From NCBI GenBank assembly GCA_964030785.1, contig OZ034967.1, positions 60,719,212 to 60,783,211 on the forward strand: 64,000 bases of DNA, in the 5' to 3' direction. The position numbers and the translations under genes are program-made. Shown here in pieces: positions 28,383 through 49,165 of the stretch. Source of the stretch: Siderastrea siderea (lineage: Eukaryota > Cnidaria > Anthozoa > Scleractinia > Rhizangiidae). Position 1 is the first letter of the stretch, and each line of letters begins with the position of its first letter. The notes under the pieces are model-generated. The model was given only the letters and a program-made list of their open reading frames with translations. It did not search any database and was not told where the DNA came from.

Positions 28383-28762
28383 TGGGGTGCCTTTGCGAAA
28401 TCAGATTTTAAGTCGTGGGACAGCTCCGCAGTTGAAAAACTCATTCACAATTCTGTAAACGTTATTTAGAAGTTCATAACAAGGCATCCAATATTACATG
28501 TAAAGCTGAACTGGGTAAATTCCCTTTGATCATTGATATAAATAAAAAAGATAATTACTTCAACTACCTCCGAGAAAAGGAAGAAAGCTCTATAGTCAAA
28601 ATCTTTAAAAATATCGATTGACCTTCATTATAACGGTCATAATAGTTTTTACTCTAGTCTCATGAAAATGACTATTACAATTTCTGTGACTTTGATTGTA
28701 ATTCATTGAATGAAGGTAAAATCAAACAATATGAAGATCTCATGAAAAAGAAATATCTCAGT
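28383..28762 (+). pseudogene. LINE reverse transcriptase fragment, part 2
   Basis: Continuation of the C-terminal region of the LINE ORF2, recognisable from ELGKFPLIIDINKK near 28509-28548. It contains frame breaks. The fragment stops exactly at the Polinton target duplication and resumes at 48701. Confidence 0.65.
28757..28762. repeat. Target site duplication, left copy
   Basis: CTCAGT directly precedes the left terminal repeat. The identical hexamer follows the right terminal repeat at 48701-48706. Confidence 0.9.
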
Positions 28763-29127
28763 AGTAGTAATGTGGGCTCGTTGGGGAAATTTCCTGGCTT
28801 CTGATTGGTTCTCACTGTTGCTAACCGGAAAGGTCACCGCTGACCGTTTTTGGTTGCTAAGGGGGGTTTGCGGGCTCAAGGGGAAGTCACATGACCGGAA
28901 GTGACCTAAACCGGAAGTCACGTGTTTTAGGATGGGAAACCGCTGAGCAGTATGAAAAAAGGATCGTGGGCTCAGGGTGGGCAAAAACAGCTGAGAAACG
29001 CGGGCTCAAAGTCCAATTGGAGCATCGGGGGTGGTCCCTGGACTCCCAAAAAAATAAATAAAAATAAAAAAAAAGATGCCATTTTGGAAAAATTAATTTA
29101 ATGCCAGATTTCCTTGGGTTTTACAAA
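28763..29127 (+). repeat. Polinton left terminal inverted repeat
   Basis: About 365 bp matching the reverse complement of 48323-48700, with small indels mainly in an A-rich run near 29048-29075. It contains two ACCGGAAGT (ETS-type) sites at 28894-28902 and 28910-28918, plus CACGTG at 28919-28924. The repeat stops about 50 bp before the polymerase stop codon. Confidence 0.9.
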
Positions 29128-29176
29128 CGAGTTGAGATCATTTGGATCAATCACTGGTTGGGCTTCTGGACTGGAT

Positions 29177-32100
29177 TCATTGGAAACCGTAGGGATACGT
29201 TTGGAAGGTCTTGGCATCTACCACTCTTTTATCGTAGACCAGGCGGTAGTCTTTTTTTTCTGGAAACGTGTACAGTTGATAGGTTTGAGGATCCCGTACG
29301 ATGTGGTGGGTTTTGTAGACGGAGGTCTCACGTGGTTTGAGGAGGGGCTTCTGGATTTCATCTAAGACATTCTGACGCATGACGCCATAATTCAATTGGG
29401 TTTTGCCTTCACTGTTAAGGCGGAAACCACGAACCTTGCACTCAACATTGCCTTTCTTGGTGGTGTAACCATAATTCTTGGGGCCACCCGACACGAATTC
29501 GATGATGTGATCATCCTTGCCCAATTCGCTGGTAAACTGACCGAGGTAAGGACCCAAGTCTGGGTTGGGTTGACCTTCGTTTGTGTAGTAGATGATGGAG
29601 TCTGTGTCGTAGTACAAGACCCGTTCTCCCAAGGGTTCCAAGGCCTCGTAGAGTTTGATCCGGGCATGACAGGTCGTGAAACAGGCGATGAAGATGTTGA
29701 GGTTGGGTGAGACGGGGATGTCTTCCTTTTGGTACTGATAATGGACCTCCACCATTTGGTCATTGATAATGGACACGTGACGTACATCCAAGCTATCGGT
29801 GTCCAAAAACTGGTGGAAGGTTTGGGGGTCATCAAATTCTTGGACTTGGGTCTTGTTGAGTCGTTGTCCAAATTTGCCCCACATGGAATTGAGCATCATT
29901 TTAGCCAGGGTACGCAGTCCCGGGTTGTATTCGATCTTGTCATAGTCCAGCTGGATGCCCTCCTGCTTGAGGTAATCATTGATGTAGGACTGTTTTTGTT
30001 GTTCTGTTTGTACGTCGACGGGCCACCCACTGGCTTCTTGCTTGATTTTCAACCACGTGTTTACGTAGTCTCGGAACAGACCTTCACAGGTTTCTTCAAA
30101 ATGCCAGACTTCATAGATGTACAGGACTTGGTACCCGAGCTCGACGGCTTTCTTTAATTCGGGGCTGCACCAGGTACTTGTCAGGGCGCGTTCCTCGTCG
30201 GGGTGAGGGCAATGATAGGATCTGTCTAGAAGGGGTTTGGCCATTTCTTCTTCCACACAACAGGCACAGAGAGGAAAGAGCAGTTTGTCGTCATGGCGGT
30301 AAGGCAGGACGGGATGGTACAGTTCACGTGGAGGGAGGATTTGGCACTGAATCAACCCAAAGTACTGGTGGATGTCCGTGTGACCCGGATGTGTAATAAA
30401 GGTTGGATGTCCTTTAGGGTAGACAGAGGTTTTGTTGACCCAAGGGTACAACGAGGTGACATCGATGTAATGGATCTTTTGGTGGGGGGTCCCTTGATGG
30501 TACAGTTTCACCGCATTGGTACGTCCTCCACAGAAAGCGTCGCGGGGATTCAGGGGTTTTGTGGTTTGAAGGTTAGCTACAAACGTACGGATGTCAGGGG
30601 AGGTGTCTTTGAGACGGGCCCAATCACATCCCCACATTTCTACCACGGTGTACCCTTGTTCTCTTAAATGTTGGGTCCTTTGTTGCGTAGCCTCGTAGAC
30701 ATCTTGCATGGACCGATCACAGTGGCGTCGATGTGTTTCGTAACGGTTGGGATAACAACGAGGACATCCATGCCAGAAACAACTGTGATATTCGTAGATC
30801 GTGTGGGTCGTCACATCGAAACCGTCCACATGGAGCTTGGTACCAGGGATGCGATACTCGCCGGCATTTTTCGCATGTTGAAGATGAGGGGCTTGGTGTT
30901 GTTGGCACCAGGTTAACCATTCGATGGCTTCGTAGGACTGATTGATGTTATTCTTCTTCCAACTAAGGGTGGGTTCACTGGCAATACTGTTGGGGATCAT
31001 CCGGTTCATGCGTAAATCCATGTTGCAGGCAGAAGCGATGGTGATGTGGTCAAAGGGGTTGAACCCCACTTGAGCTTCAAACAATTGTTTGAAAGTCAGA
31101 CATCCTTGTTTCAAGAGCCGTACATCGGATTTGCAGTATTCCAACAATTCTTGTTGGAAATCAAATAGGATGTTATTGGCACATTGCTCTTGATGCCACT
31201 TTTCCAAGGCTTGCTTGCCTTCAGGAGACATGGTTTCGGGCATGTAGTAATCGAGAGCCGGGACGATGCCCACGTAGTTTTGGTGGTCGCGGGTATTGAA
31301 CTGGTGGGGGAAGTAGCCTTTTTTCAATTCCGTTAATCCAAAGGTTTCAGGAAAGGCGGACAAAGGCATCTGGAAGAAACTCAGGGAATCGATGAAACGA
31401 ATCCGGTCGTGTTGGACTTCCAAGAGTTTACATCTGTTGCAGAGCTGTTGGACGATCCGGTTGTCACTATGGCATTGCTGGACGACAAAGTACCCATCGT
31501 ATCCTTGGAAATTATGCGCGAGTACATTGACTTGTCGGGTGTCGTTGAGTGTCAAGGTATCCAACCATTCGAGAAAATCTCGGGTACAAGAGGGGCCTGG
31601 GAAACACATGGGTTGATCGTCGTCTTCGGTTTCGGCCACGAGGAGATTAGCAATGTGTTGTTGGTCGGGTTGCATGGCTTCAATATCAAAAAACACGTGC
31701 AAGGGGGGCAGGTCGTCGTCCTCCTCTGGGGGGGTATCAGGCTCCGCGGCGGCTGCCCCTCGTTTGGCACGAGGCCCTCCTTGGTGTTTCCTCTTTCTCT
31801 TCTTCTTCTTGTCTTGAGAGGGTCTTTGAATAAAACAAAGATGAGTTTCACTGTCCACGTACTCATGGCAAGACGGGCAGTCCACGTAGTAGCATTGGTG
31901 TCTGGCAATCTGTTGTAATCCAACTTCCAGTTTAAGACAGGTAGGACAGCGACGGCGACGAAAGCACACGGAGGACTCTTGGTTGGTCGCAGGTTTGCCC
32001 GTGTGGTCCTTGCCGAGATGCATGTCGAAACAAGTGTCTCCGAAAAAGTCCCGACGACAACTGGGGCAACGTTGGGTGGCTTTCTGGGCTCGAGGGTACG

Positions 32101-33283
32101 CTGCCTGGAAATCAGGGCACTCTTTTTGGCAACAGGCTCGGCATTGTTTTTTCTTGTTGCAGCGATGTTGTCCCTCGGTATTGTAGGGTTTCCAACAATG
32201 AGCACAGACGTAACTGGATCCGAAAAACCCGGGTAAACGTGTAATCACGTCATAATGGCCTTTGTGGTGCAACAGGATCAGTTGTTTGTCTTGGGGGTCT
32301 CCATAGGTGGTGATGTGATAAGATCGATGCGCATCCACCAGGATGATCTGGTAACCGGCCAGGGACGGGGCTTTACTGAAGGCCGTCAACGCTTCGTAAC
32401 TGCAAGGGCCAAGGGGCACCTTGGCTTCGTCATGGAGGTCCCAAGCGAGACGCCTCTGGAGTTGAGTTCCTTTGCGAATGCTGTGGTATTTCGGGTGTTG
32501 GTCCACTCTGGCCTTGGCCGTGACGAGGGCTCTGGCACAACAGAGTTGATCATCATTTTGGATCCGGATGACTGAGGTTTTCTGGGCCATTAAGGCTTGG
32601 AGTGTTGGGTGCCCGGGTTTACCACGACGCGGTCTCCCGGTTCCCTGAGGGGCATGTTGGACTTGAGTTATTGATAATTGAAAGGAGTCATCCATTTCAA
32701 ATTGTTCGTTGCTGTTCAAGGCTTGCGCTAAATGGTGGATTAGGGCCTCCACACGCTCTCTGTCTTGACGCCATTCTCCCGCACGTAATCCCCAGCCCTG
32801 AAAATTGTTGTGCAGGCGATCGGAACCGATGGTAAAGTAGAGGCGATCTTGATCGTGGAGCTCAGGCGTGGTGGCTAACACTTGATTCACCGCTCGACGT
32901 AAAGCATCTTGTAGGGCTTGCGTGATGTTTTGACCTGGAATCAAGTTCCCCTTTTGGCGTAAACGGGTGTTGAAATGACGTTCATGCACTCCCATACGTG
33001 TACTCCGACGGTCGACATAATTGCGGATGTCGAACTGGAAGGCGCCCTCTGCCCTGGGATCTAAACCTCCCCCACTTTGTTCAAGGAGATGGGTTTGAAA
33101 GGCACGTTGCCGTTCGAAACGATCCAAGGCCTCTTGACAGAAGTCGTCACTGGCCGCCATCTCTTCGCTGTCTCCCATCTCTTCAGGACATAATAGGTTT
33201 GTCTCTTCTGGCTCTGAGTCCGAGCTGTCTTGGCGGGCGAGGCCGCTTGGCCCCGCCGCCTCCTCGTCTGGTTGCGAGGACAT
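29177..33283 (-). CDS. Protein-primed family B DNA polymerase (pPolB)
   Basis: Replicates the element, probably using a terminal protein primer. Numbering from the upstream ATG at 33316 (1379 residues), a cysteine-rich zinc cluster lies at about 370-495. Exonuclease motifs follow: FFDIEAM (~540), NFQGYDGYF (~604) and EYCKSDVRLL (~729). Polymerase motif A is DVTSLYPW (~954), motif B LNSMWGKFG (~1144), and motif C YYDTDSI (~1239). All catalytic acids are present. I prefer the second in-frame ATG (33283): the TATA box at 33319-33325 ends only a few bases before the first ATG, so transcription should start downstream of it. The N-terminal ~350 residues may hold the terminal-protein function, but this is inference. 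The gene is divergent from the gene at 33528 across a shared promoter. Confidence 0.95.
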   Translation of the reverse strand: MSSQPDEEAAGPSGLARQDSSDSEPEETNLLCPEEMGDSEEMAASDDFCQEALDRFERQRAFQTHLLEQSGGGLDPRAEGAFQFDIRNYVDRRSTRMGVHERHFNTRLRQKGNLIPGQNITQALQDALRRAVNQVLATTPELHDQDRLYFTIGSDRLHNNFQGWGLRAGEWRQDRERVEALIHHLAQALNSNEQFEMDDSFQLSITQVQHAPQGTGRPRRGKPGHPTLQALMAQKTSVIRIQNDDQLCCARALVTAKARVDQHPKYHSIRKGTQLQRRLAWDLHDEAKVPLGPCSYEALTAFSKAPSLAGYQIILVDAHRSYHITTYGDPQDKQLILLHHKGHYDVITRLPGFFGSSYVCAHCWKPYNTEGQHRCNKKKQCRACCQKECPDFQAAYPRAQKATQRCPSCRRDFFGDTCFDMHLGKDHTGKPATNQESSVCFRRRRCPTCLKLEVGLQQIARHQCYYVDCPSCHEYVDSETHLCFIQRPSQDKKKKRKRKHQGGPRAKRGAAAAEPDTPPEEDDDLPPLHVFFDIEAMQPDQQHIANLLVAETEDDDQPMCFPGPSCTRDFLEWLDTLTLNDTRQVNVLAHNFQGYDGYFVVQQCHSDNRIVQQLCNRCKLLEVQHDRIRFIDSLSFFQMPLSAFPETFGLTELKKGYFPHQFNTRDHQNYVGIVPALDYYMPETMSPEGKQALEKWHQEQCANNILFDFQQELLEYCKSDVRLLKQGCLTFKQLFEAQVGFNPFDHITIASACNMDLRMNRMIPNSIASEPTLSWKKNNINQSYEAIEWLTWCQQHQAPHLQHAKNAGEYRIPGTKLHVDGFDVTTHTIYEYHSCFWHGCPRCYPNRYETHRRHCDRSMQDVYEATQQRTQHLREQGYTVVEMWGCDWARLKDTSPDIRTFVANLQTTKPLNPRDAFCGGRTNAVKLYHQGTPHQKIHYIDVTSLYPWVNKTSVYPKGHPTFITHPGHTDIHQYFGLIQCQILPPRELYHPVLPYRHDDKLLFPLCACCVEEEMAKPLLDRSYHCPHPDEERALTSTWCSPELKKAVELGYQVLYIYEVWHFEETCEGLFRDYVNTWLKIKQEASGWPVDVQTEQQKQSYINDYLKQEGIQLDYDKIEYNPGLRTLAKMMLNSMWGKFGQRLNKTQVQEFDDPQTFHQFLDTDSLDVRHVSIINDQMVEVHYQYQKEDIPVSPNLNIFIACFTTCHARIKLYEALEPLGERVLYYDTDSIIYYTNEGQPNPDLGPYLGQFTSELGKDDHIIEFVSGGPKNYGYTTKKGNVECKVRGFRLNSEGKTQLNYGVMRQNVLDEIQKPLLKPRETSVYKTHHIVRDPQTYQLYTFPEKKDYRLVYDKRVVDAKTFQTYPYGFQ

Positions 33284-33313
33284 GATCAGATGAACTCGCT
33301 GGAGGTCAGTGCT

Positions 33314-33527
33314 CATGTTTTATAGAGAAAAAAGGTCCCGTGGGAGAAGAGGGTGGACCAATGACCAAACAGGACACAGGGTGCCCCTAGAGAGGGGGTG
33401 TTCATGGGAGGGGTGGGAAGGGGTGGGGGGACCCCCCTCCCCCCTCTCTAGATGGACCACCATGCATCGCGGGGAACGAATGGAGAGACTATAAAACAGA
33501 TCGCACCTCGAGGTGAGTCATCTCAAC
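33314..33527. promoter_or_regulatory. Divergent promoter, polymerase / putative regulator
   Basis: TATAAAA boxes face both ways (33319-33325 minus, 33490-33497 plus). Between them are a CCAAT box (33357-33361), a G-rich run fitting a G-quadruplex pattern (33406-33430) and a GGGGGGACCCCCC palindrome. The minus half (33314-33365) is closely related to the plus half of the other divergent region (about 47759-47810), sharing CTCCCACGGGACC and TTTCTCTATAAAA. A consensus-like GAGGTGAGT splice donor lies at 33510-33518 in the plus leader. Confidence 0.75.
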
Positions 33528-33932
33528 ATGGACTCTGGTCATGAGAACCTGTTGAACGAGTTTGAGAAATTCCAAGTCGAACAAATTTTAGATGAAGTTA
33601 AGGAGTGGGTGCTCGGTGACGAAGACATTCGTGAGTTTGGGGAAGAGTTGTTGGAGGAACGAAGGAAACGGAGGCAAGCAGCCCGAGCAGCCCAGGCAGC
33701 ACGAGCCACCTATGTCCGCACCCATTGGAACCCGGGCTGTTACCCGCAACTCAACACAGCGTGGTTTATCGAGGGCCTCGACTTCTGCTGGACGAACTGG
33801 CACCATAAATTCAAACAGCCCCAGACACCCCCGCCAGCCCCGCCGCCGCCGTCGCCCGAGGTCTGTCGAAAGCTGCCCATGCGGTCGCCGAGGCCCCACG
33901 AGCTCCCCACAAAACGACAGCGACAGCGATGA
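33528..33932 (+). CDS. Small acidic/Pro-rich protein of unknown function
   Basis: A 134-residue frame from the ATG 38 nt after a TATAAAAC box. Residues 1-50 are charged and helical (NEFEKFQVEQILDEVKEWVL), followed by an R/A-rich helix, a W/C-containing block (WFIEGLDFCWTNWHHKF) and a Pro-rich tail. The 3' two-thirds overlaps the gene at 33592-34827 in another frame. The GTGAGT at 33632 could act as a splice donor joining the start of this frame to the basic-repeat frame, so this may be the N-terminal exon of a larger regulator. I do not recognise a family. Its position opposite the polymerase suggests early expression. Confidence 0.6.
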   Translation: MDSGHENLLNEFEKFQVEQILDEVKEWVLGDEDIREFGEELLEERRKRRQAARAAQAARATYVRTHWNPGCYPQLNTAWFIEGLDFCWTNWHHKFKQPQTPPPAPPPPSPEVCRKLPMRSPRPHELPTKRQRQR

Positions 33933-34827
33933 TGACGTCGACTTGGACGAGAATAAAGTGGCAGAGATTGTGAGGAAAGAACAACAACGACTGGCGCGGC
34001 GACGAGCCGCCAGAGCTAGGTACCGGGCCAGACATCCTGAGCGAGTAGCCGAGCAGAGACGTCGGTACCGGGCCAAACATCCTGAGCGAGTAGCCGAGCA
34101 GAAACGACGGTACCAGGCCAGACACCCCGACCGAATAGCCGAGCAGGGACGACGGTATCGGGAGAGATGTCGGGCCCAATATCTTGCCCGCCTGAAACAG
34201 TACTATAAGGACCATGCAGAACGACTCCGGGAGCACAAAAGGCAATTTTACCGATCGGAAGCAGGTCAACGTTGGCAAGCACAATACCGAGTGAGAAAGC
34301 GTGAGAGCTCGGCCCTCTTACGTCGACAAAGAGGGCCCATGGTCCAAAAGACAACGGAGGAGAAACGCCAAGCGTTAGGTCCCCTAAAATTGACCGTGAC
34401 GCTGGAGGATTTTATGCAGGACTTTCATGATTCCCTCTCGCCCAGCCCTGAGGATTCTATGGACCAACCTGAGGCCATCACTGTAACGGACATGGATTCA
34501 GGGGTGCTTCATCCTCTGGATTATTCTGTATGCGACGAATCGTCCCTTTCTTCTTGTGACATGTGGGACGATGGGAGAGGATTTTTGGACAATTTACTCG
34601 AGGAGCTCGAGGACTTGCCGTCGTCATCGGACGACTCTTTGTTGGACAATTTACTCGAGGAGCACGATGACTTGCCGTCGTCATCGGACGACTCTTTGTT
34701 GGACAATTTACTCGAGGAGCTCGATGACTTGCCGTCGTCGTCATCGGACGACTGTTTGTTTGACTTTTTATGTGACATGATGCTGCAGGAGGATCCTTCG
34801 TTTGATTTGGATGACTTTGTCACTTAA
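33592..34827 (+). CDS. Basic-repeat, acidic-tail protein (putative transcription regulator)
   Basis: The open frame is 411 codons, but only the part after about 33920 looks like protein. That part has a serine/aspartate stretch, then three 15-residue repeats of the form RYRARHPERVAEQRR (34019-34153), more basic helical sequence, and a strongly acidic C-terminus. The acidic end has three 19-residue repeats, DNLLEELDDLPSSSDDSL (DNA period 57 bp from 34585). A basic helix array followed by acidic, hydrophobic repeats is the layout of a DNA-binding transactivator, by inference only. The true N-terminus is uncertain: the upstream part overlaps the frame at 33528 and may be reached by splicing. AATAAA lies at 34884. 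A 523-bp tandem duplication repeats its last third. Confidence 0.65.
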   Translation: MKLRSGCSVTKTFVSLGKSCWRNEGNGGKQPEQPRQHEPPMSAPIGTRAVTRNSTQRGLSRASTSAGRTGTINSNSPRHPRQPRRRRRPRSVESCPCGRRGPTSSPQNDSDSDDDVDLDENKVAEIVRKEQQRLARRRAARARYRARHPERVAEQRRRYRAKHPERVAEQKRRYQARHPDRIAEQGRRYRERCRAQYLARLKQYYKDHAERLREHKRQFYRSEAGQRWQAQYRVRKRESSALLRRQRGPMVQKTTEEKRQALGPLKLTVTLEDFMQDFHDSLSPSPEDSMDQPEAITVTDMDSGVLHPLDYSVCDESSLSSCDMWDDGRGFLDNLLEELEDLPSSSDDSLLDNLLEEHDDLPSSSDDSLLDNLLEELDDLPSSSSDDCLFDFLCDMMLQEDPSFDLDDFVT

Positions 34828-35488
34828 CCCTCGTCTTAGTATTTTTGGCAGAACATTTTTGAAATCGTCTTTGTATTTGGCAGAATAAAATGAGACAGTG
34901 CTTTGACATTTTCATTTTTTTATTACTCAAACATGTAACTGGGGTGTCATTAAATTTACAATCCTCAGCCCTGAGGATTCTATGGACCAACCTGAGGCCA
35001 TCACTGTAACGGACATGGATTCAGGGGTGCTTCATCCTCTGGATTATTCTGTATGCGACGAATCGTCCCTTTCTTCTTGTGACATGTGGGACGATGGGAG
35101 AGGATTTTTGGACAATTTACTCGAGGAGCTCGAGGACTTGCCGTCGTCATCGGACGACTCTTTGTTGGACAATTTACTCGAGGAGCTCGATGACTTGCCG
35201 TCGTCATCGGACGACTCTTTGTTGGACAATTTACTCGAGGAGCTCGATGACTTGCCGTCGTCGTCATCGGACGACTGTTTGTTTGACTTTTTATGTGACA
35301 TGATGCTGCAGGAGGATCCTTCGTTTGATTTGGATGACTTTGTCACTTAACCCTCGTCTTAGTATTTTTGGCAGAACATTTTTGAAATCGTCTTTGTATT
35401 TGGCAGAATAAAATGAGACAGTGCTTTGACATTTTCATTTTTTTATTACTCAAACATGTAACTGGGGTGTCATTAAATTTACAATTTT
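34443..35488. repeat. 523-bp tandem duplication (two copies)
   Basis: 34443-34965 and 34966-35488 are nearly identical. The one clear coding difference is CAC versus CTC in the second acidic repeat. Each copy holds the acidic tail, stop codon, polyadenylation signal and the terminal bases shared with the convergent minus-strand gene. Near-identity indicates a recent event. Confidence 0.9.
34982..35350 (+). pseudogene. Duplicated acidic-tail fragment
   Basis: A second copy of the acidic C-terminal 122 codons of the gene at 33592-34827, open from an internal ATG to the stop. It has no promoter of its own, since the duplication begins inside the coding sequence and places it after the original stop and polyadenylation signal. 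It is probably untranslated. Alternative use by splicing cannot be excluded. Confidence 0.7.
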
Positions 35489-35832
35489 AAACGTTTCTTG
35501 GCTTGCATGATTTTCTTGACCACCCGTTCCGTCTTGGTTTTCTTGCCGGGTAACCGATCAATGGCTTGGATCATTTTGGTATCAGCTTTCCATTTCTCTT
35601 GCAAATTCTTAGCACGGCTGTAATCAATGTCGTGTTGTTTAGCAATCTGGTCCAAGCGATTGATGCCGGGATCCCCACGTTTCAGACGTTTGGCCAAATG
35701 GGTGCCAGGGCCCATGTACTGATACCCAGGCCAATGAAATTCCTTCCCGGTTTTAGCAATCCATTTTTGGACATCCAAGGCTCCTCCTCGTTGGGGGCGT
35801 TTCCGTTTAATACCCCTTCTCTTGGTGGGCAT
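35479..35832 (-). CDS. Phospholipase-A2-like virion protein
   Basis: A 117-residue basic protein. After an arginine-rich start with QRGGA (residues 14-18), it has YMGPGT (39-44) and QHDIDY (66-71). This is the calcium-loop GPG and catalytic His-Asp pair layout of the small PLA2-like domain found in capsid proteins of several small DNA viruses and adintovirus-like elements. The inferred role is membrane breach during particle entry, with QRGG|A a possible maturation-protease site. It is the last gene of the minus-strand virion array, 32 nt after the stop of its upstream neighbour, without a TATA box of its own. It converges with the duplicated acidic-tail gene. Confidence 0.8.
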   Translation of the reverse strand: MPTKRRGIKRKRPQRGGALDVQKWIAKTGKEFHWPGYQYMGPGTHLAKRLKRGDPGINRLDQIAKQHDIDYSRAKNLQEKWKADTKMIQAIDRLPGKKTKTERVVKKIMQAKKRLKL

Positions 35833-40112: not shown

Positions 40113-40116
40113 TTCT

Positions 40117-41517: not shown

Positions 41518-41576
41518 GTTTAACGTCGTCTTCGAGTGGTGGTACCCCGTCGTCGTGAGGGGTTTTTATAGCGTCG

Positions 41577-41750
41577 TCATCGTCGTGCTAAACGTTGTCT
41601 CAAATCAAACCCGGGGACTCTCATCACCTCGGGACTTAACCATCCACCACGTTGTCGTCGCATGAGTTTCCAAAAAGGATACAGTCCTCCCCATTGAGAC
41701 AAACCTCGATCACTACGAATTCGTCGAGGTCGTGAAGGCACGGGGTCCAT
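41577..41750 (-). CDS. 57-residue basic RGG-motif protein
   Basis: A small gene filling the gap between the capsid gene and its upstream neighbour. It starts at ATG 41750, two bases after the neighbour's stop (TGA-AC-ATG), and ends at TGA 41577-41579, just before the capsid TATA box. The product is Arg-rich with an aromatic patch (SQWGGLYPFWKLM) followed by RRQRGGW (31-37), the same xRGG motif seen in the other small basic proteins. It is probably a virion peptide processed by the adenain-like protease, perhaps comparable in role to small core peptides of adenovirus-like particles. The function is inferred from motif and location only. Confidence 0.65.
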   Translation of the reverse strand: MDPVPSRPRRIRSDRGLSQWGGLYPFWKLMRRQRGGWLSPEVMRVPGFDLRQRLARR

Positions 41751-41752
41751 GT

Positions 41753-42115
41753 TCACACTCCCAAAATATCGCGCGCACGTTTAGTTTGTTTGGGAAACAA
41801 AGCACTGGCCACACGCACGGCTTCTTTCACGTTCTTATGGCTCAACGCTTTCTTGGCTTGTTTCGTGATTTCCTTTTTAATGACGTCTTCGGCTTTGCGT
41901 TTGATACCTCGTGTCAAACCCGTTTCCAATCCTCTCTTGATATTACTAGGCAGTTTTAAAGGATTTCGCGTGCTTTTAAGGCCTTGGAACCCACCACGCA
42001 AGAGATCCGTCACCAAGCCTTGTCCACTTTGACCCTGTTGATCATACCACTCGTCTGTCCGAAATCGTGTCAAACTTCCCCCACGCATCGTGTCGTCGTC
42101 TTCACGCGTTACCAA
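41753..42115 (-). CDS. Basic virion-type protein with MRGG and LRGG sites
   Basis: 120 residues. MRGGS (about 10-14) and LLRGGF (about 39-44) both fit the adenain consensus (M/I/L)-x-G-G|x, and Lys/Arg-rich helices follow (GIKRKAEDVIKKEITKQAKK). This looks like a precursor protein cleaved in particle maturation, with the basic C-terminal product able to bind DNA. TATAAAAA at 42151-42158 is 36 nt upstream of the ATG. It is followed by the 57-residue gene with a stop-start junction. Confidence 0.7.
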   Translation of the reverse strand: MVTREDDDTMRGGSLTRFRTDEWYDQQGQSGQGLVTDLLRGGFQGLKSTRNPLKLPSNIKRGLETGLTRGIKRKAEDVIKKEITKQAKKALSHKNVKEAVRVASALFPKQTKRARDILGV

Positions 42116-42164
42116 GGATCACGTTTGGTTTGTGTCACAGGACTCGTCTCTTTTTATACCGTCA

Positions 42165-42353
42165 TCATCGTCGTTTTTTCCGAAAAGCGGCTTCCAACCC
42201 TTTTTTAGCCCCGTAACTCGCTTCCCCCCCCGCGGCACCCAACGCCACGGCTTTCCCCCCAGCGATCAAGGCTGGAATGAGGGCAGCCAGTGGGAATAAA
42301 CCCCCTCGTTGCCTTCTTCTTCGTCTCCTTCCACGCACTCTTGTCTTGGGCAT
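42165..42353 (-). CDS. 62-residue basic/hydrophobic RGG-motif protein
   Basis: The N-terminus is RGRRRRRRQRGGL, then a hydrophobic Ala/Gly/Leu segment (FPLAALIPALIAGGKAVALG), then a basic tail. It has the same R-rich plus QRGG pattern as other small proteins here, and IAGG|K is a second candidate protease site. The amphipathic/hydrophobic centre could insert in membranes, as with small core or lytic virion peptides, but that is inference. CATAAAAAGG lies about 38 nt upstream. The coding end is 49 nt before the next ATG. Confidence 0.65.
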   Translation of the reverse strand: MPKTRVRGRRRRRRQRGGLFPLAALIPALIAGGKAVALGAAGGEASYGAKKGLEAAFRKKRR

Positions 42354-42391: not shown

Positions 42392-42742
42392 TTATGTCTT
42401 TGTGAAGTGCAACGTCACAATGGTATGGCCTTCACCAAACTTGACCAAGTCTCCTCCGGCACCAATCGTTTCAGCCACTTGAACGTGAATCATTTCCACC
42501 ACCTCATTACGAAGAGACATGTATTGAATGTGCAACGGTTCAAAGTACAGGGTGCCGCGTGCTTCTCGCTTGTACTGGATTTCACGCAACAAATCGGTCA
42601 CGCGATTGCCTACCATCATACTGCCTGCCACGTCGGAGTACACGTGCAACGATCGTGTGGGTTCACCCACCACGGCACGAAACGCCACATTCAAGTTGGT
42701 GAAACGCCAAGAAAGGTGTGGTTGACATTCACAAACCGCCAA
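42392..42742 (-). pseudogene. Penton-like minor capsid protein, C-terminal part
   Basis: This open frame lacks an ATG near its 5' end and continues the single-jelly-roll minor capsid (penton-like) protein from the frame at 42691-43467. It contains VVGEPTRSLHVYSDVAGSMM and ends FGEGHTIVTLHFTKT, typical of the C-terminal strands of that family. It lies in the -1 frame relative to the upstream part. A 32-nt interval between two copies of CGCCAA (42705-42710 and 42737-42742) matches the size of the frame change. Either this copy is broken there or a frameshift is used. Confidence 0.75.
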
Positions 42743-43467
42743 TTACACGTCATACTCAACTTCACATAATCCCCCTCCACTTTCCAAAAAAGGGGCTTGT
42801 TGCTGGTATCGCGGACGTCCGTCGGCGTGGGAATGGAGTCCGAATGAAATTCTTGTAAGAGATTGGGACCCAATCGATACTGACCGGGGGACACTTGTTC
42901 AATCCATCCCATTTTCAGAGCCAAGGTTCTGCCCCATGACACGTGCGCCACTTGCACTTTATAATCCACATTGACGGTATTCAACACCAAATCCCCTTCG
43001 GAGGTCCATTCAAAGGTCGGGTACAATTTGACGCCATTGTCCTCGGCCCATTTGTTGAGGGGTTGGGTTTGTTTCGCACGGGCTTGCACGTAACGATACA
43101 CCAGTTGATGAAAAAAGTGCGATCCCGTCGACGAGGCCATCTCCTTTCTCATATCTCGGCCGTAGACAGTGAGTTCGCGCCGTTGATGCCACCAGCGATC
43201 GTTCCCAAAATCGTCTTGGGCATACACCCGTTCGTGCCATCGTACGTACAACAGAGGATGGGACTCGCCCACTCCTCCTTCTTCCGCTACCACGGGAATG
43301 GTGGGTAAGGATAAACTCACCATGCCCACCATCCATCCTCGTCCTACAAATCGGATGGGTTTAGGCAATCGGTTTCTGAAATGATCACTCTTGTTCCCAG
43401 GAAACTCCTTGGTACTCGCATGACTCATCAACGTCACGTAAAACGAAGAGTTGGGGACGAACGTCAT
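42691..43467 (-). CDS. Penton-like minor capsid protein, N-terminal part (frame-broken)
   Basis: 258 codons encoding the N-terminal two-thirds of the single-jelly-roll protein that would sit at capsid vertices. It opens SSFYVTLMSHASTKEFPGNK, followed by FRNRLPKPIRFVGRGWMVGM, a pattern common in Polinton penton proteins (strand, Asn/Phe-Lys-Leu, then the W-V-G-L/M strand). The frame runs into a stop at 42691 while the family's C-terminus continues in another frame at 42392-42742. The ATG follows the integrase stop directly (TAA-AAA-ATG) with no separate TATA box, so the two are probably co-transcribed. Confidence 0.8.
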   Translation of the reverse strand: MTFVPNSSFYVTLMSHASTKEFPGNKSDHFRNRLPKPIRFVGRGWMVGMVSLSLPTIPVVAEEGGVGESHPLLYVRWHERVYAQDDFGNDRWWHQRRELTVYGRDMRKEMASSTGSHFFHQLVYRYVQARAKQTQPLNKWAEDNGVKLYPTFEWTSEGDLVLNTVNVDYKVQVAHVSWGRTLALKMGWIEQVSPGQYRLGPNLLQEFHSDSIPTPTDVRDTSNKPLFWKVEGDYVKLSMTCNWRFVNVNHTFLGVSPT

Positions 43468-43470
43468 TTT

Positions 43471-44616
43471 TTAGTCACGTCGTCGTCTTTTGGGTGGACT
43501 TGTCTCTTTGGGCGGCCTTGTCTTTTTCCTCTGGGGTGGTTGGAGAGAGGTCACGTCTTGACTACGAATCCAACTATTGTACTTGTCGGGCCACCCTTTC
43601 CACTTGACCAACCAACGATCTTTTTGTCGCTTAAGTACCTTTTCGATGCGAAACACGTCGGACACATGGACTTTTTGTAAATCCTCTTCATAAAACGTAC
43701 CTTGGACGGGGGTATCATCCCATTCGTGAATCTTATACGTGGGCACGGGTCCCGGGACCACACGATGCACCACAAACACTTCTTCAGTCCAACCAGGTAA
43801 ATAGCCTTTGGCAAAGGTACGATGAATCTTGTTGAGACGGACACGATCTCCGACTTTGAATGTAGGTTTTTTCTGGTCTTTCCCTCGTTTGGCATACAAT
43901 CGTTTCCACACCGCTTCTTCGTTGTCCCATGTCACGTCTTGAGGTGCCATACCAATACTTCGATGACGGGTCGCATTATACCCTTGCACCAACTCGGGTA
44001 AGACCTCGTCAAAGCGTAAGGTGTTAGCCGCGGTAAAATAACGGTACAACCGTTCTTTCAAGGTGCGATTAAATCGTTCCACCACACTGGCTTTACCATC
44101 CCCTTCCGTCGAAAAATGTTTGATGCCTTGCTCGTCAAGCCATCGTTGAAAGGTCCGATTATAAAATTCTTTCCCTCGATCCGTTTGCAATCGATTAGGG
44201 TGACGTCGTCCTTCTTTCAAAATCTTGTCAAAGGCATGAACCAACGCCACGCCGGTTTTGTCTTTCAACGGTTGTACCCACGCGTACTTGGACAACACAT
44301 CCAACACCGTCAACAAGTATCGTATACCCCGATTATACTTGGCCAACGGTTGCACTTCCACTAAATCCGCGACCCATTGATCATCTAATCCCCCCACAAT
44401 CACGGGTACGGTGGGAAAACGACGACGCCGCGGTTTATGTAACGTATAGGCCAAATCCCGTTCCAAGACCCGTTGAGCTTTTTTCAAAGGGAGACGATGG
44501 GCTTTAGCAAACCGTTGCACGCCTCCTAAACTGCCGGGGGCTCGAGGATCGTGGTACCGATTCAACCATGATTGGGACACATCCTTTTTCTTTCGAGGGG
44601 CCATACGTTCTGGCAT
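43471..44616 (-). CDS. Retroviral-type integrase with chromodomain
   Basis: 381 residues. It inserts the element and creates the 6-bp duplication. The catalytic core has D84 (WVADLVE), D146 (QTDRGKEF) and E180 (KASVVERFNRTLK), with 33 residues between the last two. It is followed by a basic linker and a chromodomain-like block near residues 325-360 (FRIEKVLKRQKDRWLVKWKG, then W-P-x-x-x-N-S-W). The C-terminal tail is very basic. The N-terminal zinc-binding motif seen in many integrases is not obvious. A second ATG at 44604 is possible. The first 55 bases overlap the preceding small gene. Confidence 0.92.
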   Translation of the reverse strand: MPERMAPRKKKDVSQSWLNRYHDPRAPGSLGGVQRFAKAHRLPLKKAQRVLERDLAYTLHKPRRRRFPTVPVIVGGLDDQWVADLVEVQPLAKYNRGIRYLLTVLDVLSKYAWVQPLKDKTGVALVHAFDKILKEGRRHPNRLQTDRGKEFYNRTFQRWLDEQGIKHFSTEGDGKASVVERFNRTLKERLYRYFTAANTLRFDEVLPELVQGYNATRHRSIGMAPQDVTWDNEEAVWKRLYAKRGKDQKKPTFKVGDRVRLNKIHRTFAKGYLPGWTEEVFVVHRVVPGPVPTYKIHEWDDTPVQGTFYEEDLQKVHVSDVFRIEKVLKRQKDRWLVKWKGWPDKYNSWIRSQDVTSLQPPQRKKTRPPKETSPPKRRRRD

Positions 44617-44915
44617 TCATCCCATAAGGTCGGTATGGTGGGGACCGTGTTGGGATGCGCCTTTTGAATGATTCGATACCATCGCCATGCGTTCGGATGA
44701 GCTTTTAACCATAAGACAAACACCACCCATCGATACAGGTTGCGGTCGACGTGGGTTTCTTCAAACAGGTGGAGAGGATGCGTGTCCTCGGGACAAGGGG
44801 GTATGGGGATTTTAGTACTGGGTTGATGATCATATAAGACTTGACAAAGGGTTTGATGGCATTGCCATTGCACCAGGGACAAGACAGAATCCCACGCATA
44901 ACACACAGACTCCAT
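44562..44915 (-). CDS. Unknown Trp/His-rich small protein
   Basis: 117 residues overlapping the start of the integrase gene by 55 nt. It has aromatic helices (NLYRWVVFVLWLKAHPNAWR) and many Cys, His and Trp residues. I do not recognise a family. Support comes from its ATG (CCATGG context), a TATTAAAAAGG box about 35 nt upstream and the absence of any competing gene in this space. It may precede integrase and penton in one transcript. Confidence 0.55.
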   Translation of the reverse strand: MESVCYAWDSVLSLVQWQCHQTLCQVLYDHQPSTKIPIPPCPEDTHPLHLFEETHVDRNLYRWVVFVLWLKAHPNAWRWYRIIQKAHPNTVPTIPTLWDECQNVWPLERKRMCPNHG

Positions 44916-44957: not shown

Positions 44958-45824
44958 TTAAAAGAGACCTAGACGTCCACAGGTGATGGTCTCTAGACCT
45001 TTCTGCCAGTTCTCAACACTGTCACTGTACTTGGGGGGTGGTGGAGCTGGGGCTACCATCATTTCTTGACGGTTCTTGAGATCTTGAATTTCTCGCAACA
45101 ATTGTTTCTCATAATCTGTCAGGGACCGTTCTCGTTCCACGTCCTCTTTCCTTCTGACTCGAGCTGGAGGGCCTGGGATGTCCACTCCACGTTTGGGATA
45201 TCCTTGAGCATCACGGGTGGGCGGTGCAGCGAGTGGATCGGCTTTTTTGGGGGGATGGTCATGAAACCAACTCCAGTACTTGGGACCCAAGGGTTGATCG
45301 GCCCACCGAAAGAAGCCACACGTTTTCTTGGAACAATTCAGAAACAAGCGATCGGGGTTCTGGGTCGAATGACTCTGTTGAAGCGTGGCGGGTTCACGGC
45401 AAAAGCATTGCAAACCACCGCACATGTCCAACACTTCTGCATGAGGTTGACTATACACGGCTTTCATATACTCCAGAACTTGATCTTGTCCACAAAACAG
45501 CAAACACGGTTGCATGGGACATTTCACATAAGGCCATCCCTTTTGAGATTCTCGCGCCTCCAAACGCACCTCATGGCAAGGACATACCATATAGTCCACC
45601 GAACTGGGAGGCATGAGGTCTTGGGCCGTCAAGGTGAATTGAGGTGATGGTGTAGATTGCTCCACCATGTCATTCAATTCTTTCATCATGTCTTCCACCG
45701 CAGCTCGGGTGTCTTCCACCACTTCGCATACCACAGGATCACAGTCCACATTCTCTTTCTTTTTCTTCTTCCCCGCAGGGTGTACGCTTTGCTTTCTCTT
45801 CCGATCCACAGACATCCTGCTCAA
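44958..45824 (-). CDS. GRF-type zinc finger protein
   Basis: 288 residues. A basic, Lys-rich start is followed by two cysteine modules. The first is VCPCHEVRLEARES with YVKCPMQPCLLFCG (about residues 79-110). The second is CFCREPATLQQ with RLFLNCSKKTCGFFRWAD (about 140-178). The second closely fits zf-GRF (CxC, then R-x-F-x-x-C, C-x-F-F-x-W), a single-strand nucleic-acid-binding finger found in DNA repair and topoisomerase proteins. The C-terminus is a coiled coil (LTDYEKQLLREIQDLKNRQ). The likely role is in DNA replication or as an ssDNA-binding factor. TATAAAAA lies 25-30 nt upstream, and the gene diverges from the SLOG-like gene. Confidence 0.75.
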   Translation of the reverse strand: MSRMSVDRKRKQSVHPAGKKKKKENVDCDPVVCEVVEDTRAAVEDMMKELNDMVEQSTPSPQFTLTAQDLMPPSSVDYMVCPCHEVRLEARESQKGWPYVKCPMQPCLLFCGQDQVLEYMKAVYSQPHAEVLDMCGGLQCFCREPATLQQSHSTQNPDRLFLNCSKKTCGFFRWADQPLGPKYWSWFHDHPPKKADPLAAPPTRDAQGYPKRGVDIPGPPARVRRKEDVERERSLTDYEKQLLREIQDLKNRQEMMVAPAPPPPKYSDSVENWQKGLETITCGRLGLF

Positions 45825-45846
45825 AGGTTGTTTTCACCCACCCATG

Positions 45847-46025: not shown

Positions 46026-46721
46026 ATGCCCCCCAACATCGACATGATCGGAGAACAAGATCTCGATGCCTTGGAACTCCAGGTTGGCTATGGCCATGTG
46101 GTGTACACCGGGGGAGCCAGAGGCACGGATGCACTCGTCGAAGAAATGGGCAAACAGTTTGGGATGCAAGTCGAAGTCCTCGTCCCCCCGAACCATCCTC
46201 GAGCCACCTTCATCACCCCGTCGACCGTGGAAGTCTTGATGCTGGCCAACCCCCATCTTCACCAGGCAGCTGAGAAACTAGGCAAACAGATGCCCAGTCA
46301 TTTTTACACCCTGCAATTGCTGCAACGCAATTATCAAATTGCCAAAAAAGCCCATACGATCTATGCGTTTGGCATCTTGGAACAGGATCATAAACGCGTG
46401 AAAGGAGGCACCGGTTGGACCGTGCAATTGGCCATGGATCAAGGCAAACCCGTCTATCTCTTTGATATCCCCAGTCAATCATGGTACCGCTCGGACCATT
46501 ACTACCAAGTCAACGAGAAGGCCGCCACCCTGGTCAGTGGCAGTCAATTTGTCCCTTGGGGACCCAAAAAGCCCACCCTTCATCGAAGCAGTGCTATTGT
46601 GGGATCCCGGGATGTGGACGACAAAACCCGAGCAGAAATTCAAGCCTTATTCAATCGCACCTTCTGTCTCCCCGAGAACATTGATCAATTACGTCTGGAA
46701 CTCGAAGACTTTCATTTGTAA
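46026..46721 (+). CDS. SLOG-like Rossmann protein (YspA/DprA-type fold)
   Basis: 231 residues. Motifs are VVYTGGARGTD (25-35), a phosphate-binding GGxRGxD loop; VPP (53-55); RNYQIAKKAHTIYAFG (101-116), the RN..A..h.h.hh strand; and GGTGWTVQLAMDQGKPVYLFD (127-147), the GT-x-x-T-I/V helix and strand. These belong to the SLOG superfamily, which binds nucleotides or nucleotide-derived signals. Unusually, SSAIVGSRD (188-196), which resembles the family's first strand, sits at the C-terminus, suggesting a circularly permuted domain. It is the only major + strand gene in the middle of the element. The function is unknown. Confidence 0.7.
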   Translation: MPPNIDMIGEQDLDALELQVGYGHVVYTGGARGTDALVEEMGKQFGMQVEVLVPPNHPRATFITPSTVEVLMLANPHLHQAAEKLGKQMPSHFYTLQLLQRNYQIAKKAHTIYAFGILEQDHKRVKGGTGWTVQLAMDQGKPVYLFDIPSQSWYRSDHYYQVNEKAATLVSGSQFVPWGPKKPTLHRSSAIVGSRDVDDKTRAEIQALFNRTFCLPENIDQLRLELEDFHL

Positions 46722-47038: not shown

Positions 47039-47581
47039 TCAATTGTTCAAATTGGCCATACACCGTTCATAGGCTTCCATAGCGTCTCTCTCCAACTCAT
47101 CCAGCCGACGCCACCGCTCCTGTTCCTTCTTCATCTCTTCAAAAAAATAAATAATGTTCTGCCAGCGAAAGCCCGCATGAATACTGGGGAGATGGTTGAC
47201 CAAATAGCTGTCCAATTCCCGAAAGTGTTCTACACTGATGGGCCACTGGCTCTCGTCCCTGGTCCAGCTGCGGTTCATGTTGATCCACGGGATGACTCTA
47301 TGGACCAATGCTTTGTTCAACATTTTGCATGACGCCCTGGTTTGATAACCGTGGCGGTGGGCATTTTCCATGTACACCACAGACAACAAATAAAGTTCAA
47401 TGAACGCCGCCACGCGCCGCCGGTTCAAGGGCCTCCATGTCTCCTCTCTCCTTTCGTGCATTCTCCAGGCTACTCTCTCGGTATGTGTTCGCTCCCGTGG
47501 CACTAGTCTCCCTACAGCTTCCTCTCCGTTTACATTCACAAAACTACTCAGAGAGCTCAAGGGCCTTCTCGTTTCGGACAT
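47039..47581 (-). CDS. Unknown helical protein
   Basis: 180 residues from ATG 47581. It is mainly helical, rich in Arg/Glu, with FIELYLLSVVYMENAHRHGY in the middle and a C-terminal amphipathic helix (EEMKKEQERWRRLDELERDA). I recognise no family. The frame stays open upstream to 47680, but a TATATAAG box at about 47659-47666 falls inside that extension, so I take the ATG about 80 nt downstream of it. It diverges from the RING gene and is probably early or regulatory by position. Confidence 0.6.
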   Translation of the reverse strand: MSETRRPLSSLSSFVNVNGEEAVGRLVPRERTHTERVAWRMHERREETWRPLNRRRVAAFIELYLLSVVYMENAHRHGYQTRASCKMLNKALVHRVIPWINMNRSWTRDESQWPISVEHFRELDSYLVNHLPSIHAGFRWQNIIYFFEEMKKEQERWRRLDELERDAMEAYERCMANLNN

Positions 47582-47893: not shown

Positions 47894-48313
47894 ATGACTC
47901 AATCCAAACCATGTGTGGTCTGTTTGGAACCTCTCGCCAATTATACCACGTTGAGGTGTTGTGGTCAACCTTGTCATGCCATCTGTGCCTACAAATGCCA
48001 AAAGTACCGTCTGACCCAAACATGTCCTAGCTGCCATCTCGTCGCTCCTCTTTCCGTCCTTGAAGTCCTCCATGAAGAATGGAAAGAAGACCCTCCGTTT
48101 GTCCAGCAAGTCAAGGCCCTTTGGAAAGACAACCCTTTATGGTACGGCATTTCCTATAACTTTTTCGGCGAGGGTCAGGAAGGATTCTGGGGAGAACCCC
48201 AACATTCGAATGATGATGCTAACCACAAAACCCTCTACTTTCTGGGGCAAACCAAAACCCAAGTCATTCGACGACTGAAAAACGGGTATGAACTTCTCGT
48301 AAAAGGACAGTAA
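47894..48313 (+). CDS. RING-finger protein (putative E3 ubiquitin ligase)
   Basis: 139 residues. Cys/His spacing KPCVVCLEPL, LRCCGQPCHAICAYKC and TCPSCHL (residues 6-49) fits a RING-type zinc finger (C-x2-C, then C/C-H-x2-C, then C-x2-C). The remaining C-terminal domain is aromatic and unrecognised (LWYGISYNFFGEGQEGFWGE). RING proteins carried by DNA viruses and Polintons are usually thought to redirect host ubiquitination. Here that role is inferred. It is the last gene before the right terminal repeat, and its stop lies only about 10 nt outside it. Confidence 0.75.
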   Translation: MTQSKPCVVCLEPLANYTTLRCCGQPCHAICAYKCQKYRLTQTCPSCHLVAPLSVLEVLHEEWKEDPPFVQQVKALWKDNPLWYGISYNFFGEGQEGFWGEPQHSNDDANHKTLYFLGQTKTQVIRRLKNGYELLVKGQ

Positions 48314-48322
48314 AGGATTTCC

Positions 48323-48700
48323 TTTGTAAAACCCAAGGAAATCTGGCATTAAATTAATTTTTCCAAAATGGCGTCTTTTTTTTATTTTTTATTTTTATTT
48401 ATTTTTTTGGGAGTCCAGGGACCACCCCCGATGCTCCAATTGGACTTTGGACTTTGAGCCCGCGTTTCTCAGCGGTTTTTGCCCACCCTGAGCCCACGAT
48501 CCTTTTTTCATACTGCTCAGCGGTTTCCCATCCTAAAACACGTGACTTCCGGTTTAGGTCACTTCCGGTCATGCGACTTCTCCTTGAGCCCGCAAACCCC
48601 CCTTAGCAACCAAAAACGGTCAGCGGTGACCTTTCCGGTTAGCAACAGTGAGAACCAATCAGAAGCCAGGAAATTTCCCCAACGAGCCCACATTACTACT
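48323..48700 (-). repeat. Polinton right terminal inverted repeat
   Basis: About 378 bp, the reverse complement of 28763-29127 with a few mismatches (for example GCGACTTC versus GTGACTTC-type changes near 48570) and a longer T-rich tract. It ends CATTACTACT. High identity between the two repeats indicates a young insertion or gene conversion. Confidence 0.9.
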
Positions 48701-49165
48701 CTCAGTATCTCTTACTGGAACCAAATCCTTCAACATTCGCAAAAACTTAGTTTTTATTACATATTCAAAGAGAATTATAGCGTTTCTGCCTACCTAGATC
48801 TAACAAGAAAGAATCTAGAAAATCATTAGTAAAACTGAGAATTAGCAGTCATAAACTTCGGATTGAAACAGGTAGATACGACAAAATACCTCGTGATGAG
48901 AGATGTAGTCTCTGCAATTGTAACAAGATTGAAGATGAAACTCGTTTTTTACTAGATTGCCCGAGCTATTCTTCGCTAAGAGACAGGTTCTTTTTTAAAA
49001 TAGAACCTAAAATCCCATTTCTACGACTATTATCACATGAGACCTTATTGTCACATCTAATGAATTGTACTGATTATTTTATAAATATTCAATTAATTTC
49101 ATTCATCTCGTCATGCTTTGAACAGAGAGACAAACTAGTTACAATGGCCACCTCTCTGAATGGTT
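48701..49165 (+). pseudogene. LINE ORF2 fragment, part 3 (after Polinton)
   Basis: Starts with the right copy of the target duplication (CTCAGT, 48701-48706). It continues the LINE C-terminal domain: SYWNQILQHSQKLSFYYIFK, KLRISSHKLRIETGRYDKIP, then the zinc-knuckle-like CSLCNCNKIEDETRFLLDCP block (about 48909-48968). It proves that the element landed inside a LINE. One frame change near 48825 shows that the LINE was already decaying. Confidence 0.7.

What the first reader, a model, noticed from the sequence alone, without database searches (positions are those of the whole stretch)
28757..48706. Near-complete, probably young Polinton/adintovirus-like element with perfect target duplication
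Exact ends, a 6-bp CTCAGT duplication, ~365/378-bp highly similar terminal repeats and a full replication plus virion gene set are all readable. Few disabling changes are present, so it is close to being a functional endogenous virus-like element.
Basis: partly seen in the sequence, partly recalled or inferred. Interest (0 to 1): 0.9.

Follow-up and report, generated by a model that had tools for sequence, protein, structure and literature searches.

The report
Coral-type Polinton carrying phage-like SLOG gene
The stretch is a 20-kilobase virus-like mobile element of the Polinton/Maverick kind in an animal genome, one of many copies there, and it carries a strongly conserved gene of a nucleotide-handling family so far known mainly from bacteriophages and giant viruses, which suggests a way for it to interfere with host defence signalling.

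Summary
A 19,938-bp element (28763-48700) has 365/378-bp inverted repeats (361 of 365 aligned bases identical, two indels), AGTAGT...ACTACT ends and CTCAGT on both sides. It encodes PolB, rve integrase with chromodomain, an ATPase, an adenain-like protease and probable capsid proteins: a Polinton/Maverick of adintovirus type.

Three corrections. (1) It is not exceptional: 87 other capsid genes at 91-95% identity were listed, and nine other elements show 0.2-6.5% inverted-repeat divergence (1.1% here). (2) The minor capsid gene lies in two frames. (3) The retroelement it sits in runs uninterrupted elsewhere, but 7 of 7 inspected copies lack CTCAGT, so the 'perfect target duplication' is not a simple copy of an ancestral target.

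More interesting is gene content: a SLOG (DprA-like) gene at 46026-46721, related to phage proteins (36% identity, E 1e-28), and a possible SLATT membrane protein. A 2022 survey reports viral SLOG only in tailed phages and giant viruses. Best reading: a Polinton lineage with an acquired SLOG gene acting on ADP-ribose-type nucleotides; the substrate is inferred.

The parts
28757..28762 (.). left CTCAGT
28763..29127 (+). left terminal inverted repeat, 365 bp, starts AGTAGTAATG
29177..33319 (-). type B DNA polymerase (Polinton type), 1380 aa open frame
   Evidence: PF03175 E 3.8e-47; SLYP, NSMWGKFG and YDTDS stretches (motif meaning recalled)
33318..33478 (.). promoter-like region between PolB and the + strand frames; inverted near-copy at 47669-47807
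   Evidence: function inferred
33592..34827 (+). 411-aa frame, basic repeats then acidic repeats (regulator-like, inferred); overlaps a 134-aa frame 33528-33932
   Evidence: codon score low
35479..35832 (-). phospholipase A2-like protein, 117 aa, with QRGG
   Evidence: PF08398 E 2.8e-11, above curated cut-off
35865..36458 (-). 197-aa protein, unknown
36554..36880 (-). 108-aa protein, unknown, dN/dS 0.12
36868..37227 (-). 119-aa basic protein with QRGG (core-protein-like, inferred)
37167..37832 (-). SLATT-like membrane protein, 221 aa
   Evidence: PF18181 E 2.4e-4, NF033634 E 1e-4, both below curated cut-offs; a rival weak hit to Exosortase_EpsH, 5.9e-4; adjacent hydrophobic stretches 67-106; 150 listed places
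37835..38722 (-). Gly-rich protein
38766..39419 (-). packaging-type ATPase (role inferred)
   Evidence: P-loop hits: PF00910 E 1.3e-4 just above its cut-off, AAA_16, Pox_A32 below theirs; dN/dS 0.103
39681..40199 (-). adenain-like cysteine protease
   Evidence: PF00770 E 7.4e-4, just below cut-off
40117..41565 (-). probable major capsid protein, 482-aa frame
   Evidence: size, position, 88 listed places; no meaningful database hit; name from recall
41577..42353 (-). three small basic frames (57, 111, 62 aa), two of them with QRGG
42392..43467 (-). probable minor capsid (penton) gene, in two frames: 42691-43467 and 42392-42742
   Evidence: name from recall, no meaningful hit
43471..44616 (-). 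rve integrase with C-terminal chromodomain, 381 aa
   Evidence: PF00665 E 8.3e-13, PF00385 E 3.8e-5; PDB integrases and CBX7
44562..44915 (-). 117-aa protein, unknown, dN/dS 0.22
   Evidence: no Pfam hit
44958..45815 (-). GRF zinc-finger protein, 285 aa
   Evidence: PF06839 E 1.3e-5, 0.2 bits below cut-off
46026..46721 (+). SLOG (DprA-like) protein, 231 aa
   Evidence: phrog_768 E 1.3e-9; phage homologues; model; 150 listed places; dN/dS 0.06
47039..47581 (-). 180-aa protein, unknown, divergent among copies
47894..48313 (+). 139-aa protein with RING-like Cys/His pattern
   Evidence: Pfam RING only E 0.96
48323..48700 (-). right terminal inverted repeat, 378 bp
48701..48706 (.). right CTCAGT

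Best explanation
An integrated Polinton/Maverick (adintovirus-type) element of a lineage with many copies in this animal genome. Shown: ends, inverted repeats, flanking hexamer, a gene set by profile hits of varying strength, a multicopy family, constraint on genes between copies. Inferred from the families: the integrase inserts linear DNA, PolB copies it from protein-primed ends, the ATPase packages it, the protease matures small basic core proteins at QRGG-like sites, and the PLA2 and SLATT-like proteins help to cross membranes. The SLOG gene is an acquired accessory gene, apparently general in this lineage, on the strand opposite to the virion genes. I think it most likely binds or cleaves ADP-ribose-type nucleotides (products of TIR/NAD enzymes) and so blunts a host defence; that substrate is inferred from predictions for relatives and not shown (the defence step alone I put at 0.25-0.4).
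For: Gene families. Ends and 6-bp duplications as in vertebrate Mavericks. SLOG: 84 of 89 IMG/VR loci found by motif align with it at E<=1e-3, best 36% over 198 aa, E 1e-28; 15 of 50,697 phage records match, best 33%, E 8e-23; model pLDDT 85.8 matches phage proteins at E about 2e-12 (not independent, since the model was built from phage relatives); the 11 columns invariant in the 48-sequence alignment are kept in 28 of 28 full-length copies compared, out of 30 loci. SLOG and SLATT: 150 listed places each (cap; window included), 139 and 147 without a stop; 71 pairs in window geometry against 0.7 expected; 4 of 4 inspected capsid loci without a listed SLOG carry one at about 92% identity (4 of 78, taken from near the top of the list). 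dN/dS 0.056 SLOG, 0.074 SLATT, 0.103 ATPase, 0.26 GRF.
Against: SLOG and SLATT copies were the top 30 of a similarity ranking, which lowers dN/dS; ATPase and GRF, in the same loci but not ranked on, are the control, and 4 of 28 ATPase and 5 of 24 GRF copies hold a stop. SLATT hits are below curated cut-offs, compete with an Exosortase hit, and the fold model failed (pLDDT 41.5). Capsid names rest on recall. Foldseek against PDB gave no match at E<=0.001 for the SLOG model; Pfam hits of SLOG are weak (0.006-0.09). No substrate evidence at all. SLATT lies among the virion genes, so a SLOG-SLATT signalling pair is not indicated by position.
Confidence: 0.6

Rival explanations
1. The SLOG protein is a DprA-like single-strand DNA binder that helps replication or recombination of the element, with no role in defence.
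For: Database names are 'DprA-like DNA recombination-mediator'; the element should replicate by protein priming and expose single strands (recalled); high conservation, as for the ATPase.
Against: The order of conserved blocks (GGARGTD first, GSRD strand last) looks circularly permuted as in cpYpsA (my reading; Pfam cpYpsA only E 0.087, DNA_processg_A 0.0058); PMC9503650 (passages) places viral SLOG mainly in the YpsA-like clade and predicts an NAD-linked role.
Confidence: 0.3
2. SLOG and SLATT form one signalling unit, as proposed in bacteria: SLOG senses a nucleotide and gates a SLATT pore, killing the cell or excluding a competing virus.
For: Both occur in the same elements, 71 pairs, and both are constrained.
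Against: They lie 8.8 kb apart on opposite strands; the SLATT-like gene sits among the virion genes, and SLATT is published in protist Polinton-like viruses as a possible entry pore.
Confidence: 0.1
3. The copies are an ordinary burst of a dead transposon, and conservation reflects recency only.
For: Many copies; Mavericks make up 5-7% of two coral genomes (PMC12005156, passages).
Against: Copies differ at median dS 0.18 with dN 0.011 (ranked sample), and left inverted repeats of different elements differ mostly by 8-14% while the two repeats of one element differ by 0.2-2.7% in 8 of 9 others and 6.5% in one: most differences arose while proteins were under selection, before insertion.
Confidence: 0.1

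Closest known systems
Vertebrate Mavericks (PMC8097293, abstract and passages)
   Same: (AGT)2//(ACT)2 ends, 6-bp duplications, size within 12.7-24.6 kb, core of PolB, integrase, ATPase, protease and two capsid proteins, accessory genes near the ends
   Different: there the two gene modules mostly lie on different strands, here PolB and the virion genes are both on the minus strand; SLOG, SLATT-like and PLA2 genes seen here; host not a vertebrate by my recall
Adintoviruses (PMC11071296, passages); a Stylophora coral polinton with vOTU fused to PolB is named in PMC11071308 (passages)
   Same: adenovirus-like gene set plus rve integrase with C-terminal chromodomain
   Different: neither main text contains the words SLOG, SLATT or DprA; OTU domain not tested here; the paper that proposed the family is not held
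Phage DprA-like/SLOG proteins (phrog_768; Klebsiella phage Pylas, uncultured phage cr109_1)
   Same: TGGARGTD- and GGTGW-type blocks, terminal GSRD-type strand, predicted fold
   Different: about 33-36% identity; here a stand-alone gene of an animal mobile element
SLATT proteins of protist Polinton-like viruses (PMC12220804, section 13 part 1, and passages)
   Same: putative membrane pore protein in a related virus group
   Different: there lipase genes are absent and SLATT is offered as the alternative; here a PLA2-like gene is present too; not aligned with them

Membership tests
Polinton/Maverick | protein-primed family B polymerase | tested here: met
   PF03175 E 3.8e-47, 1380-aa open frame; protein priming itself not testable
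Polinton/Maverick | retroviral-type integrase | tested here: met
   PF00665 E 8.3e-13; D84, D146, E180 (choice of residues is mine)
Polinton/Maverick | long terminal inverted repeats, (AGT)2//(ACT)2 ends, 6-bp flanking duplication | tested here: met
   but the hexamer is absent from 7 of 7 inspected paralogous empty sites
Polinton/Maverick | packaging ATPase and adenain-like protease | tested here: inconclusive
   fit, but weak: PF00910 1.3e-4 (above cut-off), AAA_16 4.2e-4, Pox_A32 7.8e-4; PF00770 7.4e-4, 19.7 vs 21.3 bits
Polinton/Maverick | double and single jelly-roll capsid proteins | tested here: inconclusive
   no Pfam hit, no meaningful PDB hit; size and order fit
Adintovirus | integrase with C-terminal chromodomain | tested here: met
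   PF00385 E 3.8e-5, cut-off missed by 1.1 bits; CBX7 5.4e-5
Adintovirus | N-terminal OTU-like domain on PolB | not tested
   no OTU hit in the Pfam scan of the frame; no fold run
Adintovirus | hexon found by BLASTp from reference adintoviruses | not testable with these tools
   no eukaryotic virus protein set; the search for homologous proteins off
SLOG superfamily, viral DprA-like clade | sequence and fold homology with conserved GG..G.D and GGT.W blocks | tested here: met
SLOG superfamily, viral DprA-like clade | binding or cleavage of adenine/NAD-derived nucleotides | not testable with these tools
   no assay
SLATT | two-helix membrane domain matching SLATT profiles | tested here: inconclusive
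   Pfam 2.4e-4 and NCBIfam 1e-4, both below cut-off; Exosortase 5.9e-4 as well; no padloc hit; model unusable
Phospholip_A2_4 | profile above curated cut-off | tested here: met
   43.9 bits vs 23.9

The most novel reading that the evidence does not exclude
An animal Polinton lineage has acquired a phage-type SLOG protein that destroys or soaks up cyclic ADP-ribose-type immune signals made by the host's TIR proteins: a prokaryote-style counter-defence at work in an animal DNA virus, kept by selection in many genomic copies.
Probability: 0.25. Interest if true: 0.85.

Novelty: new variant of a known kind. Interest (0 to 1): 0.6.

Why it matters
A 2022 survey of 21,191 viral proteomes states that viral SLOG domains are found only in tailed phages and giant viruses (PMC9503650; abstract start, passages). 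In the open-access library searched, one search listed all 3 papers that hold at least two of the words SLATT, SLOG and Polinton, and none holds both SLOG and Polinton; the listings showed no such paper either, but 76, 116 and 139 showed only 25 of 140, 15 of 50 and 8 of 40, and the paper that proposed adintoviruses is not held. Many conserved copies in one animal make the question of what viral SLOG proteins do directly testable, and would link NAD-type immune signalling in animals to a DNA virus.

Tried and rejected
Considered, not tested: host origin of the SLOG gene from TRPM channels (TRPM was not aligned; its blocks match phage proteins). Rejected: a programmed -1 frameshift in the minor capsid gene, as suggested for some adintoviruses (PMC11071296, passages): no canonical slippery heptamer lies in the overlap; the nearest is outside it. 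Close relatives in IMG/VR: none confirmed by SLOG peptide patterns, none by PolB patterns or a PolB motif, perhaps because that collection as held lacks such viruses. LxCxE search: one, in the PolB N-terminus, not pursued. SLATT protein in phages: no match at E<=1. SLOG in plasmids: no match at E<=1e-5. PADLOC gave only ShosA, E 0.013, for SLOG; PHROGs also gave a 'GTP-binding domain' family at 1.1e-4. An apparent SLATT mention in PMC9116030 was an author name. The single-sequence fold of the SLATT-like protein was useless and was not searched. SLOG and SLATT had no PDB sequence match at E<=1.

Not answered: the capsid copy search until; the pattern counts and the minor capsid copy search never.
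Full report
What is there. The window holds an element of 19,938 bp at 28763-48700. Its left inverted repeat (28763-29127) and right one (48323-48700) share 361 of 365 aligned bases, with indels of 7 and 6 bp. The ends read AGTAGTAATG and CATTACTACT, with CTCAGT outside both. This is the (AGT)2//(ACT)2 end motif and 6-bp duplication described for vertebrate Mavericks (PMC8097293, abstract and passages). GC is 47-55% in the 2-kb steps inside the element (30001-48000) against 35-43% in the flanks.

Genes. On the minus strand, from right to left: a 180-aa protein, a GRF zinc-finger protein, a 117-aa protein, integrase (rve E 8.3e-13, chromodomain E 3.8e-5), probable minor capsid protein, small basic proteins, a 482-aa probable major capsid protein, adenain-like protease (E 7.4e-4), ATPase, a Gly-rich protein, a SLATT-like membrane protein, small proteins, a PLA2-like protein (E 2.8e-11) and PolB (E 3.8e-47). 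On the plus strand: a basic/acidic repeat protein, the SLOG gene, and a 139-aa protein with a RING-like pattern (Pfam RING only E 0.96). The capsid names come from size, order and recall; no Pfam profile and no PDB sequence matched in a meaningful way. QRGG occurs in four frames: PLA2, 119, 57 and 62 aa; adenain-type cleavage there is my inference.

Damage. PolB, integrase, ATPase, protease, the 482-aa frame, SLOG and SLATT have no internal stop. The minor capsid gene is different: coding signal moves from one frame to another between 42691 and 42742, with no canonical slippery heptamer in the overlap. I describe this and go no further.

Family in the genome. The window lies in an unnamed 831-Mb assembly. 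The left inverted repeat has 44 matches there, the window's two included (40 of 1,944 candidates scored). Searches with single proteins gave only the best-scored places: SLOG 150 (1,678 first-look candidates), others 92-99% identical, 139 of 150 without a stop; SLATT 150 (2,739 candidates), others 92-98%, 147 of 150 without a stop; major capsid 88 (2,153 candidates), others 91-95%, 86 of 88 without a stop. Among the two lists of 150, 71 SLOG-SLATT pairs have the window's geometry, 0.7 expected by chance; two more lie 28 kb apart. Only 10 of the 88 capsid places have a listed SLOG nearby, so I fetched the expected SLOG place for 4 of the other 78, chosen near the top of the list: 4 of 4 carry SLOG at 92% identity over 230-237 aa, beside a GRF gene at 74-84%. 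SLOG is thus probably general in this family; 74 capsid places remain unchecked.

Age and history. For nine other elements whose two inverted repeats were found, within-element substitution is 0.2-6.5% by local alignment (1.8% for the window by the same method, because that alignment runs into the flanks; 1.1%, 4 of 365, for the repeats alone), while left repeats of different elements differ mostly by 8-14%, range 1-16%, 3% for the window's nearest. By my reading of the printed flanks 8 of 9 have matching hexamers (two of them the same hexamer with the same flanks, so one insertion duplicated later); one had no recognisable end. So elements mostly diverged before they were inserted. Between 30 SLOG copies median dN is 0.011 and dS 0.176; between 30 SLATT copies 0.014 and 0.144. 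From the first Met on, dN/dS is 0.056 and 0.074, against 0.103 for the ATPase, 0.12 for the 108-aa frame, 0.16 for the 197-aa frame, 0.22 for the 117-aa frame, 0.26 for GRF, 0.26 for the 119-aa frame (3 copies), 0.52 for the Gly-rich frame (6 copies) and 0.16 for the 180-aa frame (12 copies, dS saturated); RING and integrase could not be estimated. Stops: 3 of 30 SLOG, 0 of 30 SLATT, 4 of 28 ATPase, 5 of 24 GRF. SLOG and SLATT copies were picked by similarity, which biases their values down; the ATPase and GRF values come from the same loci without that choice.

Insertion site. The flanks look like one retroelement: RVT_1 E 5.6e-14 on the left (no Pfam hit on the right), and in the joined flanks a short frame reads on across the junction. 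The joined flanks match 40 of 40 scored places (461 candidates) along 346 of 350 bases at 93-95% identity: the retroelement is uninterrupted elsewhere. But in 7 of 7 copies inspected, out of those 40, the hexamer CTCAGT is absent; 6 have nothing in its place and one has a different short insertion there. So either this copy had a private 6-bp insertion exactly where the element landed, or the element arrived with the two hexamers already on it, or the site is prone to small insertions. I cannot choose.

SLOG. The 237-aa stop-to-stop frame (231 aa from Met) hits phrog_768, 'DprA-like', E 1.3e-9; Pfam hits are weak (DNA_processg_A 0.0058, YAcAr 0.049, cpYpsA 0.087). A motif scan of IMG/VR gave 89 loci, of which 84 align at E<=1e-3. 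In 50,697 phage records 15 match, best Klebsiella phage Pylas, inside its virion RNA polymerase (33%, E 8e-23), and uncultured gut phages annotated DprA-like. A model from 48 sequences has pLDDT 85.8; of viral predicted structures 9 match at E<=0.001, best about 2e-12, those with names being phage proteins, TM-scores 0.43-0.67 by query length; giant-virus proteins follow at about 2e-3. The model was built from phage relatives, so this is not independent. PDB gave nothing at E<=0.001. The 11 invariant columns of the alignment are kept in 28 of 28 full-length copies, three of which hold a stop elsewhere. The strand with GSRD comes last, as in circularly permuted YpsA (my reading).

Function. PMC9503650 (passages) states that viral SLOG domains were found only in Caudoviruses and NCLDVs and predicts that they degrade cyclic ADP-ribose or related signals. 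I take over that prediction as the most likely role, at about 0.25-0.4, and mark it as inferred. The SLATT-like protein lies among the virion genes; PMC12220804 (section 13, part 1) proposes such proteins in protist Polinton-like viruses as pores for endosomal escape where lipases are missing. Here a PLA2-like gene is also present, so the two would not be simple alternatives.

Host. The flanking sequences look cnidarian, probably a stony coral (recalled, not tested). Bulk Maverick content of 5.20% and 6.74% is published for two corals (PMC12005156, passages), so abundance as such is not new.

Noticed in passing
34443-35485: A tandem duplication with offset 523 bp; one mismatch in 520 positions. 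It repeats the acidic C-terminal part of the 411-aa frame.
   Followed up: partly
33318-33478 and 47669-47807: An inverted near-copy of the region between PolB and the plus-strand frame recurs between the 180-aa and the RING-like frames: perhaps two copies of a bidirectional promoter.
   Followed up: partly
28757-28762 / 48701-48706: CTCAGT is absent from 7 of 7 inspected paralogous retroelement sites; one copy (L182) has a different short insertion at the same place.
   Followed up: partly
G000:C6:26565267-26605518 and C6:27437834-27477620: Two 40-kb elements with the same hexamer and printed flanks: one insertion in a later duplicated segment; twice the usual size, with SLOG and SLATT 28 kb apart.
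   Followed up: no
29177-33319 (-): An LLCPE (LxCxE-type) motif followed by acidic residues lies in the N-terminal part of the PolB frame.
   Followed up: no
G000, e.g. C5:55465062, C7:49057275: In some listed SLOG copies the open frame is longer than 237 aa, up to 380 aa, so an N-terminal extension may exist.
   Followed up: no
47039-47581 (-): The 180-aa right-end protein is far more divergent among copies than the rest (partial matches of 43% and 53% in two of four fetched pieces; dS saturated), like a fast-evolving accessory gene.
   Followed up: partly
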